From NCBI GenBank assembly GCA_002356215.1, contig AP017959.1, positions 1,752,195 to 1,816,194 of the forward strand: a DNA stretch of 64,000 nucleotides. Reading direction: 5' to 3'. Each line of letters opens with the position of its first letter. Within the stretch, counting starts at the first letter, position 1. This document shows, piece by piece, positions 60,781 through 63,384 of the stretch. The position numbers were made by a program, and so were the translations under genes. The stretch comes from [Synechococcus] sp. NIES-970 (GTDB lineage: Bacteria; Cyanobacteriota; Cyanobacteriia; Cyanobacteriales; MRBY01). The notes beneath the pieces were generated by a model that was not told the DNA's origin, ran no database searches, and was given only the letters and a program-made list of their open reading frames with translations.

Positions 60781-61095
60781 CTAAAATTTATGAGCGCTCA
60801 GTACCTCCGCATTACAGAGATAAATGATGCCTGAATAATCATTAAAAAATTGAGCACTGATCTGATCAGAAATCTGTTGGGCCAGCTCTCGATTAGCGGT
60901 GAGTACCTCAATTTTGATATTTGAGTAATCTTCAGAAACATTCGGCTGCCCCGACGAACGGACGTTACGACTACCTCTCCCGCCGGCCGCAACCACCGTG
61001 TAACCACTTGCACCAGCGGCATCAATGATTTTGATAATTTTTTTGAGCAGTAGTTTTTCTGTGACAATAACGAGCTTGCTGGCTTGCTGGGTCAT
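60781..61095 (-). CDS. sbtB: SbtB, P-II-like regulator of bicarbonate transport
   Basis: Binds adenine nucleotides and inhibits SbtA, coupling bicarbonate uptake to energy and cAMP status in studied cyanobacteria. From ATG 61095, with GGAGG before it, the protein is 104 residues. It has [22 protein letters not shown] and the T-loop [29 protein letters not shown], and ends [15 protein letters not shown]. It lacks the C-terminal CGPEGC redox loop seen in Synechocystis SbtB. Unlike most cyanobacteria, it is divergent from sbtA and 1.1 kb away. Confidence 0.93.
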
Positions 61096-61620
61096 GGGTT
61101 TACCTCCTGATACAGGGTCTAGAAATTCACTAAAAAAATTAGGTTGTTGTAACAAAACTGGCCCGCAAAACTCAAGATAAAAATCTATGACTTTGCCTTA
61201 AACCATCATCATGAGTCTATGGCAAAAAAGACTTTTGTTGGCAGAGATCGCTTCAGATTAGTGGAAGCATTTCATAAAAAAGGCTTATCTGCTTAGCGGT
61301 TTGGCGATCGCCTGACTGAAAAAGTTCAACATCGCAAGACTGCTTGGGATTACATAAGTTTTGTTTATAAATAGATACCGCAAGTTTAAAGCCATTTTCT
61401 TCGCAAAATATCGCTTGTTGATTGGATTTTTTATAGTCTAAAGAATATGGTCCTAGGAAAAACCATAGACAAAAATCAATGATTTAAAAAAATAGCTTGA
61501 AGGCACCAGTGCAGTTTTAGGGGCACTTCTCTGTTTCTTGCAGATCTTCAGTCGCTATCTCGTTCAAAACAAGTAAAGCCCTTGTCGGGGGACATACCAA
61601 AACACGATGGAGCAACGGCA
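61096..61620. other. Spacer between sbtB and the small membrane protein gene
   Basis: Contains an open frame at 61219-61374 that reads 25 codons, one TAG, then 25 more codons. It begins MAKKTFVGRDRF and after the stop RFGDRLTEKVQHRKTAWDYI. It may be a decayed or chance frame. Also present are ATAG-N8-ATAT (61433-61448) and ATAG-N8-CAAT (61465-61480), partial matches to the low-carbon regulator site found near sbtA. Confidence 0.4.
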
Positions 61621-61863
61621 ATGAATAAGTTTGAATCAAAACCATCACCGCCCAAGCTGAATGTAAACCAAGGGTGGGTTGTGCAAATATATGGCAGGAA
61701 TCGTCAATTGCTCTGGGTCTTAGAACCCTCCCATGGGTGGATGTTCTTAATCGGCTGCAGTATCGGTTTACTGCTGGCTGTCATTTGGATTAATCTCGCC
61801 CGCCATAGTCCGCCCCCAGAGGCGACGCCAATAGTTGAGCCCCCTACATTGCAAGTAGATTAA
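61621..61863 (+). CDS. Small one-helix membrane protein between sbtB and sbtA
   Basis: I do not recognise it. From ATG 61621 the protein is 80 residues: a polar N-terminus, one hydrophobic segment (WMFLIGCSIGLLLAVIWINLA), and a Pro-rich tail. The longer frame to 61582 is less likely. Its position suggests a link with bicarbonate uptake or its regulation, but nothing in the sequence proves this. A weak hairpin (AAGCC/GGCTT then a T run, 61925-61957) may end it. Confidence 0.55.
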   Translation: MNKFESKPSPPKLNVNQGWVVQIYGRNRQLLWVLEPSHGWMFLIGCSIGLLLAVIWINLARHSPPPEATPIVEPPTLQVD

Positions 61864-62253
61864 CTCTTCTGGCGTCAGGCTCTTTCGATAAAATGCTGTG
61901 ATCCTGCTCTATCAGGAATTCTAGAAGCCTCGCCGCTCGATTTTAGGTGGCTTTTTTGTGACTGGCTGCAACTGGCGATCGCCATACAAAAGAAAAACTT
62001 ATCACGTGAATTGGATATTACATTACCCCTGCTGATGGCAAGACGCAGAAATCCATGTATCTTTAAATAGTCTTAAGCAGATAAAAAACAAACTATCGAT
62101 AGTTTTTTGCCTATAGTAAATGGTGCAAGTGACGATCGCCTACCAAGCTCGACCTAGGGCAAGGGGGGCACTTCACCAGGACTTTTTTTAATCTTTCAAG
62201 CTCACACCATCACAATTGTCCCTTCCTGCGTAGGGAGGGAAAAGGAGGTATTT
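61864..62253 (+). promoter_or_regulatory. sbtA upstream region with CcmR/NdhR-type site
   Basis: ATAG-N8-CTAT is exact at 62099-62114, matching the site proposed for the low-CO2 LysR regulator NdhR/CcmR. It overlaps a 16-base perfect palindrome AAACTATCGATAGTTT at 62090-62105. The site is about 140 bases before the sbtA start. No gene was found in this stretch. Regulation is inferred from the match. Confidence 0.55.
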
Positions 62254-63384
62254 GTGGATTTCTTGTCCCTCTTCTTTATGGACTTCGTTAAGCAGTTACA
62301 GTCTCCAACCCTCAGCTTTTTGATCGGTGGGATGGTGATCGCTGCTTGCGGTAGTCAACTACAAATTCCAGAATCAATTTGTAAAATCATCGTCTTCATG
62401 TTGCTCACCAAAATTGGTCTGACGGGTGGCATCGCAATCCGTAATTCTAATCTGACGGAGATGATTTTACCGGCACTGTTTTCCGTTGCCCTAGGGATTC
62501 TCATCGTATTCATCGCGCGCTACACTTTGGCGAAACTACCAAAGGTCAAAACGGTAGATGCGATCGCCACCGGAGGATTATTTGGGGCCGTGAGTGGTTC
62601 CACCATGGCTGCCGCCCTAACTCTCCTAGAAGAACAAAATATTCAATACGAAGCATGGGCCGGCGCACTTTATCCTTTCATGGACATTCCTGCCCTCGTC
62701 ACTGCAATTGTGGTAGCCAACATCTATCTCAATAGAAAGAAACGGGCTTCATTAGATAACCTTGCTGTCCAAGAGTCCTTCAGCAAGCAGCCCGTTGCCG
62801 CTGGTGATTATTCTGATGCGCAAGATTACCCCAGCAGCCGCCAAGAGTACCGCAGTATGCAACGGGGGTCAGCGAATAATCGCGTGAGGATATGGCCGAT
62901 CATTCAAGAAAGCCTCCAAGGACCAGCCCTCTCCGCCATGCTGCTCGGTGTTGCCCTGGGCCTGTTTGCTCAGCCGGAGAGTGTCTATGAAAGTTTCTAT
63001 GATCCCCTTTTTCGGGGTTTGCTTTCGATCCTGATGTTAGTGATGGGGATGGAAGCCTGGTCAAGGATTGGTGAACTACGCAAAGTGGCCCAATGGTACG
63101 TCGTCTATAGCATGGTCGCCCCCTTAGTCCATGGATTTATCGCCTTTGGTCTGGGTATGATTGCCCACTATGCCACCGGATTCAGCATGGGTGGTGTTGT
63201 GGTTCTGGCCGTAATTGCTGCCTCTAGTTCTGACATTTCGGGGCCGCCCACTTTGCGTGCTGGTATTCCCTCAGCCAACCCCTCTGCCTATATTGGTGCC
63301 TCCACGGCGATCGGGACTCCCATCGCCATTGGTTTGGGGATTCCCCTCTTCCTTGGTCTTGCCCAGGCCCTCATGGGCGGCTGA
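62254..63384 (+). CDS. sbtA: Sodium-dependent bicarbonate transporter
   Basis: High-affinity Na+/HCO3- symporter in the plasma membrane. The 376-residue protein starts with GTG 62254, preceded by AAAGGAGG. It is organised as two inverted halves, about ten membrane helices in all, with a cytosolic loop near residues 165-215 between them. Family blocks are GGIAIRNSNLTEMILPALFS and GGLFGAVSGSTMAAALTLLEEQ, and GPPTLRAGIPSANPSAYIGAST near the end. Induction by low CO2 is expected. Confidence 0.97.
   Translation: MDFLSLFFMDFVKQLQSPTLSFLIGGMVIAACGSQLQIPESICKIIVFMLLTKIGLTGGIAIRNSNLTEMILPALFSVALGILIVFIARYTLAKLPKVKTVDAIATGGLFGAVSGSTMAAALTLLEEQNIQYEAWAGALYPFMDIPALVTAIVVANIYLNRKKRASLDNLAVQESFSKQPVAAGDYSDAQDYPSSRQEYRSMQRGSANNRVRIWPIIQESLQGPALSAMLLGVALGLFAQPESVYESFYDPLFRGLLSILMLVMGMEAWSRIGELRKVAQWYVVYSMVAPLVHGFIAFGLGMIAHYATGFSMGGVVVLAVIAASSSDISGPPTLRAGIPSANPSAYIGASTAIGTPIAIGLGIPLFLGLAQALMGG

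What the first reader, a model, noticed from the sequence alone, without database searches (positions are those of the whole stretch)
60781..63384. Divergent sbtB and sbtA with an unknown one-helix protein gene between them
In most cyanobacteria sbtB follows sbtA in one operon. Here sbtB is on the opposite strand, 1.1 kb from sbtA, and an 80-residue unrecognised membrane protein (61621-61863) lies between, on the sbtA strand. This could uncouple regulator and transporter expression and the small protein may be a new partner.
Basis: partly seen in the sequence, partly recalled or inferred. Interest (0 to 1): 0.6.

Follow-up and report, generated by a model that had tools for sequence, protein, structure and literature searches.

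The report
SbtC gene in a divergent sbt locus
The unknown small gene beside the bicarbonate pump gene sbtA is very probably SbtC, a recently described membrane partner of that pump, and its gene layout is shared by many cyanobacteria rather than unusual; the locus is still of interest because its pump and its regulator seem to come from two different lineages.

Summary
In detail: sbtB (60781-61095, minus), an 80-aa one-helix protein (61621-61863, plus) and sbtA (62254-63384, plus); only the sbtB start needs correcting. The small protein is homologous to proteins encoded just upstream of sbtA in three close relatives of Synechocystis PCC 6803, the place of SbtC (Walke et al. 2026, known to me only through a commentary and passages of two reviews). 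Of 271 genomes of the order, 58 carry the family and all 58 have sbtA; 48 of 61 copies lie within 6 kb of it. Divergent sbtB/sbtA is common (46 of 133 loci), and the window's order occurs in 16, the window included. So 'new partner' and 'unusual order' are not supported; 'partner of SbtA' is. Beyond the accounts I could read: (1) the locus looks mosaic, SbtA in a mostly tandem clade, SbtB (no redox R-loop) on the divergent side; (2) an exact NdhR box lies before sbtC in 16 of 47 copies, but is degenerate in the window; (3) a second SbtC-like subfamily is partly linked to flv4-sll0218-flv2 operons or Mo-nitro_C genes. Function in this organism is inferred.

The parts
60781..61095 (-). sbtB, PII-like regulator, 104 aa, without the C-terminal CGPxGC R-loop (ends SAHKF)
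61433..61448 (+). degenerate NdhR-like box (ATAG-N8-CTAT with 1 mismatch), distal site upstream of sbtC
   Evidence: one-mismatch matches are at chance level in the window (16 found, 12.8 expected), so this rests on the alignment with relatives
61465..61480 (+). degenerate NdhR-like box (1 mismatch), aligned with the exact box about 160 nt before sbtC in relatives
   Evidence: same caution
61621..61863 (+). sbtC homolog, 80 aa: family-invariant W19, Y24, L30, S37, H38, one membrane helix, C-terminal -VD
61735..61806 (+). predicted membrane helix of SbtC, residues 39-62 (the only confident part of the model, pLDDT about 84-85)
61932..61951 (+). terminator-like hairpin with T tail after sbtC (weak: 3 such sites found, 3.3 expected by chance)
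62099..62114 (+). exact NdhR-type box ATAGTTTTTTGCCTAT, 155 nt before sbtA; the only exact one in the window (chance mean 0.44; 35 of 100 shuffles have one or more)
   Evidence: motif
62254..63384 (+). sbtA, Na+-dependent bicarbonate transporter, 376 aa, of the mostly tandem SbtA clade that includes the Synechocystis relatives

Best explanation
The locus encodes an SbtA-SbtB-SbtC bicarbonate uptake system in the divergent layout sbtB< sbtC> sbtA>. The 80-aa protein is an SbtC homolog: one membrane helix, a cytoplasmic N-terminal segment (inferred from the positive-inside rule) with conserved W19, Y24, L30, S37 and H38, and a short outer tail ending in -VD. It probably sits beside SbtA in the membrane and helps SbtB restrain or close the transporter, limiting uptake when carbon is sufficient and leakage in the dark. 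Low CO2 probably induces sbtA, and sbtC with it, through NdhR-type boxes, while sbtB, on the other strand, has its own transcript. Shown here: homology, selection, linkage, layout, boxes (that of sbtC only degenerate in the window). From literature on another species: effect on transport and co-migration. Inferred: that the same holds here.
For: Homologs lie on the same strand 422-430 nt upstream of sbtA in G040, G041, G043, whose SbtA is 96% identical to PCC 6803 SbtA; that is where the commentary places SbtC. All 58 of 271 genomes with the family have sbtA. The same layout in 16 loci incl. the window, G001 and G002. Purifying selection. Exact ATAG-N8-CTAT within 400 nt before sbtA in 44 of 134 copies (1.35 expected) and before sbtC in 16 of 47 (0.3 expected), 13 of these 16 at -157 to -168; NdhR motif from a passage of PMC13249358. 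Commentary PMC13360264 (main text): SbtC lowers SbtA-dependent uptake, SbtB and SbtC limit dark leakage, the three co-migrate on native gels.
Against: Of five genomes of that genus four have the gene and one, G012, has none found. The primary paper was not held, and secondary accounts differ: the commentary says SbtC inhibits uptake, the review says it may be required for efficient transport; the commentary also reports no significant growth defect and no direct interaction test. The window's own boxes before sbtC are degenerate, and a single exact box before sbtA is not rare by chance. The terminator after sbtC is at chance level. The model is poor outside the helix (mean pLDDT 62.1). No expression or interaction data for this organism.
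Confidence: 0.85

Rival explanations
1. The ORF is a cis-acting leader peptide or a dual-function RNA that controls sbtA rather than a membrane partner.
For: It lies upstream of sbtA on its strand in 35 of 133 loci (17 C>A>B>, 16 B<C>A>, and G087 and G215), and in one subgroup a block of about 200 nt before and about 130 nt after the ORF is conserved with it.
Against: In 12 loci the gene lies behind sbtB or beyond it instead, where a cis effect on sbtA is hardly possible; protein-level selection; conserved helix region and -[VIL]D end in 49 of 52 linked copies.
Confidence: 0.05
2. The protein belongs to a broader family of low-carbon membrane small proteins whose main role is with Flv2/Flv4-Sll0218 (photosystem II protection); the link to SbtA is secondary.
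For: Of 15 copies not beside sbtA that were examined, four are in or next to flv4-sll0218-flv2 operons (G003, G099, G127, G414) and five directly follow a Mo-nitro_C gene; flv or Sll0218-like (PsiE-family) genes lie near 17 of 133 sbt loci.
Against: The window protein is on the 51-row side of the family tree, 49 rows of which are sbt-linked; the other side (100/93) holds 12 unlinked copies plus G004 and G005. All 58 carriers have sbtA.
Confidence: 0.08
3. The apparent mosaic of SbtA and SbtB is a tree artefact of a short SbtB and uneven rates; both genes were inherited together.
For: Forcing the window SbtB into the tandem-type SbtB clade costs only 2.7 log units (p-AU 0.41). Silent sites of sbtA are saturated: 40-47% identity at four-fold sites even against eight relatives of its own clade.
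Against: Holding the SbtA clade together without the window and G116 costs 30.9 log units (p-AU 0.035, 52 of 129 rows). The tandem-type SbtB clade has support 100/99.9 without the window. Protein identity: SbtA 91.7% to G228 but 73.8% to G001 of the same genus; SbtB 86% to G048 and G069 but at most 68% to SbtBs encoded with the other SbtAs of that clade, G116 (72%) aside. SbtBs encoded with the other SbtAs of that clade carry an R-loop, G116 and a partial second copy in G087 aside.
Confidence: 0.2

Closest known systems
SbtC of Synechocystis sp. PCC 6803 (Walke et al. 2026, unread; seen through the main text of PMC13360264 and passages of PMC13249358 and PMC13104629)
   Same: Small one-helix protein gene next to sbtA on the same strand; homologs sit upstream of sbtA in three genomes whose SbtA is 96% identical to that of 6803.
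   Different: In the window sbtB is divergent rather than following sbtA, and SbtB lacks the R-loop; function here is untested.
SbtA-SbtB pair of PCC 6803 (7cye, 6wue and others)
   Same: SbtA aligns over its full length; the stretch [11 protein letters not shown] of SbtB (its T-loop, from recall) is identical.
   Different: Window SbtB ends at residue 104, without the CGPxGC R-loop; the genes are divergent.
flv4-sll0218-flv2 operon (NdhR-controlled in 6803, passages of PMC4390876)
   Same: SbtC-like genes are in or next to it in G003, G099, G127, G414.
   Different: No such gene was recognised in the fetched stretch around the window's sbt genes (L159); the window protein is on the sbt-linked side of the family tree.

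Membership tests
SbtC | Sequence homology to the PCC 6803 protein | tested here: inconclusive
   Sequence of 6803 SbtC not held; homologs in three genomes with SbtA 96% identical to that of 6803, at the described place.
SbtC | Encoded beside sbtA | tested here: met
   390 nt upstream of sbtA, same strand.
SbtC | Single transmembrane helix | tested here: met
   Helix 39-62 is the confident part of the model; that it spans the membrane is inferred from its hydrophobic make-up.
SbtC | Induced at low CO2 | not testable with these tools
   Only boxes: exact before sbtA, degenerate before sbtC.
SbtC | Complex with SbtA and SbtB, effect on uptake and leakage | not testable with these tools
   Reported for 6803 in the commentary.
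SbtA | Sbt_1 domain and full-length match to SbtA | tested here: met
   E 1.2e-92; 7cye E 2.8e-198.
SbtB | PII-like domain and full-length match to SbtB | tested here: met
   P-II E 4.3e-15; 6wue E 6.2e-41 with [11 protein letters not shown].
SbtB with redox R-loop | C-terminal CGPxGC | tested here: not met
   Protein ends SAHKF at residue 104.

The most novel reading that the evidence does not exclude
SbtC-like proteins are one of several interchangeable parts of a low-carbon membrane toolkit: sbtA, sbtB and sbtC are reshuffled between lineages, the window carries a natural hybrid (tandem-type SbtA, R-loop-less divergent-type SbtB, SbtC), and a second SbtC subfamily serves the Flv2/Flv4-Sll0218 system in the way that SbtC serves SbtA.
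Probability: 0.3. Interest if true: 0.65.

Novelty: new member of a known kind. Interest (0 to 1): 0.42.

Why it matters
SbtC was known to me only from one strain, with the remark that its presence follows neither phylogeny nor lifestyle. The survey gives a rule (in 271 genomes never without sbtA), conserved residues to mutate (W19, Y24, S37, H38, the -VD end), a natural hybrid SbtA/SbtB pair for testing which parts must match, and an SbtC-like subfamily linked to photoprotection genes. If the hybrid works, SbtA and SbtB of different lineages could be mixed when bicarbonate pumps are engineered.

Tried and rejected
A chance ORF: rejected by homologs and purifying selection. An Rfam RNA in 59000-64000: none at E up to 1. 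A solved relative of the small protein: none (best E 0.18). Plasmid or phage copies: no match in either collection at E 0.01.

A link between sbtC and absence of the R-loop: 42 of 72 SbtB copies without R-loop are in sbtC genomes against 18 of 61 with it, but independent pairs on the trees do not support it, so I do not claim it. R-loop and divergent layout never coincide (0 of 46 divergent rows); yet the R-loop changes only once on the SbtB tree, whose columns may include the R-loop, and on the SbtA tree the pairs (0 same, 4.5 opposite) do not reach 0.05.

sbtC spreading faster than its neighbours: over 780 cross-family pairs of 42 genomes (damaged copies left out by hand, 15 pairs dropped for few sites) silent identity of sbtC is lower on average (0.43; sbtA 0.49; sbtB 0.56); 12 pairs have like sbtC and unlike sbtA, 14 the reverse. 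So I claim reshuffling, not a mobile cassette. I noticed no terminal repeats by eye at the block ends in 13 aligned loci; no repeat search was run. A recent replacement of sbtA: its silent sites are saturated, and proB and ORF 63571 were not found in the fetched stretches around the sbt genes of G001 and G002, so place and time of any exchange are unknown.

Rows dropped before counts: family tree without G172 and L145 (score under 50); L138 (G247) and L143 (G008) gave no open SbtC frame; the trees hold 129 rows, incomplete or odd layouts left out; one search used 52 of them; upstream stretches under 150 nt were skipped.

Full report
What is there. The window is part of a 3.12-Mb genome in five contigs; that it is Picosynechococcus-like is my recall. 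The neighbours are an amino-acid kinase/PUA gene, proB by my reading, on the sbtB side and an unassigned ORF from 63571 on the sbtA side.

The small ORF is a gene. The five best homologs in the 40 relatives searched are 63-70% identical, the further ones less. Codon comparison shows purifying selection (dN 0.19, dS 1.03 against G039; dN 0.19, dS 1.63 against G001). In 19 aligned members M1, W19, Y24, L30, S37, H38, G45 and G49 are invariant. Of 52 sbt-linked copies 49 end in -[VIL]D; the exceptions are G053, G086 and G153, which look truncated or frameshifted. Of 15 unlinked copies 12 end so, two in -[VIL]E, one differently. A model from three sequences is confident only for the helix 39-62. 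Basic residues before and acidic residues after the helix suggest N-in, C-out (inference).

It is very probably SbtC. Three genomes of one genus (G040, G041, G043) have SbtA 96% identical to that of Synechocystis PCC 6803 (7cye sequence), and in each a homolog of the window ORF lies on the same strand 422-430 nt upstream of sbtA. Of the two others of that genus, G042 has it too and G012 has none found. A 2026 commentary (PMC13360264; I saw part 1 of 2, the main text and most references) reports from Walke et al. [quoted passage not shown] The primary paper was not held. A review puts the effect the other way, as required for efficient transport (PMC13249358, passages). I did not have the 6803 SbtC sequence, so the name rests on place and on close relatives.

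How often and where. In 271 genomes of the order (at least 85% complete) SbtA was found in 133, SbtB in 132 and the SbtC family in 58, and no SbtC genome lacked SbtA. Only up to 20 candidates per genome were scored in that SbtC search (up to 14 in the phylum search), and a few of the 58 are weak or broken copies, so 58 is approximate. 48 of 61 copies lie within 6 kb of sbtA; 13 do not. In 133 fetched sbt loci the layouts are: A>B> 56, B<A> 24, C>A>B> 17, B<C>A> 16 (the window among them), C<B<A> 6, A>B>C> 4, A>B>C< 2, A> alone 2, and six single forms. So same-strand sbtA-sbtB is the majority, but divergence is ordinary (46 of 133). In a phylum sample 27 of 386 genomes have the family, five of them outside the order; all five have an SbtA match, in one (G473) only a fragment with a stop. 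One genome, 61% complete (G034), has an SbtC-like gene and no sbtA found.

Regulation. The NdhR motif ATAG-N8-CTAT (PMC13249358, passage) occurs exactly once in the window, 155 nt before sbtA (chance mean 0.44, 35 of 100 shuffles have one, so alone this is weak). Across loci it lies within 400 nt upstream of sbtA in 44 of 134 copies (1.35 expected from base shuffles), of sbtC in 16 of 47 (0.3 expected) and of sbtB in 15 of 133 (1.15 expected), the last probably in part the same boxes seen from the other side. Before sbtC 13 of the 16 are at -157 to -168, with a second half-site like the one before sbtA. In the window both sbtC boxes carry one mismatch, and one-mismatch matches are at chance level there. 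A terminator-like hairpin follows sbtC, but such sites are no commoner than chance.

A mosaic locus. In the SbtA tree (129 rows) a clade of 49 (SH-aLRT 100) holds almost only tandem loci; the only rows of plain divergent loci in it are the window and G116. In the SbtB tree both are on the other side, in a group mostly of divergent loci. In a reduced tree (52 rows, SbtB cut at residue 104) the tandem-type SbtB clade has 100/99.9 without the window, and the window joins G048 and G069 at 95/86. Holding the SbtA clade together without the window and G116 costs 30.9 log units (p-AU 0.035); forcing window SbtB into the tandem-type clade costs 2.7 (p-AU 0.41), and G116 2.8 (p-AU 0.41), so the SbtB half is supported by the branch but not by that test. 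The groups were named after seeing the trees. G269 has a divergent sbtB, a tandem sbtA-sbtB pair and then a partial second sbtA; G261 shows the opposite mixture. Window SbtB has no R-loop; R-loops occur in 61 of 133 SbtB copies and in none of 46 divergent rows, in line with about half of 460 SbtBs in PMC10991534 (passage). The SbtB stretch [11 protein letters not shown], its T-loop by my recall, is intact, so the pair may work.

A second subfamily. The SbtC-family tree (65 rows, only 81 columns) separates 51 rows, 49 of them sbt-linked, from 14 rows, 12 unlinked plus G004 and G005 (100/93). Of 15 unlinked copies, those of G003, G099, G127 and G414 are in or next to flv4-sll0218-flv2 operons, in the last three just after an flv gene; those of G001 (second copy), G252, G089, G074 and G034 directly follow a Mo-nitro_C gene; the other six have neither beside them. 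The G414 copy falls among the sbt-linked rows on a long branch, so flv linkage and subfamily do not match fully. In G381 sbtC, sbtA, sbtB, Mo-nitro_C, an Sll0218-like gene and, after one more ORF, an flv gene lie on one strand. Flv or Sll0218-like (PsiE-family) genes lie in 17 of the 133 fetched sbt stretches. The flv4-2 operon is NdhR-controlled in 6803 (PMC4390876, passage). In the listings I saw no report of SbtC-like genes in that operon, but the primary SbtC paper is unread.

Verdict. What may be new is the hybrid SbtA/SbtB pair, the box before sbtC across loci, and the flv- and Mo-nitro_C-linked subfamily.

Noticed in passing
L133, L135, L137, L149 (G003, G099, G127, G414): SbtC-like genes in or next to flv4-sll0218-flv2 operons, in the last three just after an flv gene.
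   Followed up: partly
L134, L139, L142, L144, L152: SbtC-like genes directly after a small Mo-nitro_C (PF06967) gene; in L134 (a 253-kb contig of G001) nitrate/bicarbonate-type ABC genes and a porin gene are beside them.
   Followed up: partly
L289 (G269) 5001-8585: Tandem sbtA-sbtB pair between a divergent sbtB and a partial second sbtA: a possible intermediate in the exchange of sbt genes.
   Followed up: partly
L269 (G215): Two sbt systems side by side: sbtC-sbtA-sbtB in tandem and a divergent sbtB/sbtA pair.
   Followed up: no
L147 and L157 (G473): Only an sbtA fragment with a stop is left, while an sbtB-like frame and an intact sbtC frame follow it.
   Followed up: no
L208, L189, L236, L248 (G086, G053, G153, G172) and G254:C56:409507-409608: Truncated or frameshifted sbtC copies beside a full-length sbtA match, perhaps sbtC being lost.
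   Followed up: no
L180, L186, L192, L194, L202, L205, L211, L229, L231, L237, L256: Sll0218/ColA-like (PsiE-family) gene in the fetched stretch around sbtA, without flv genes found there.
   Followed up: no
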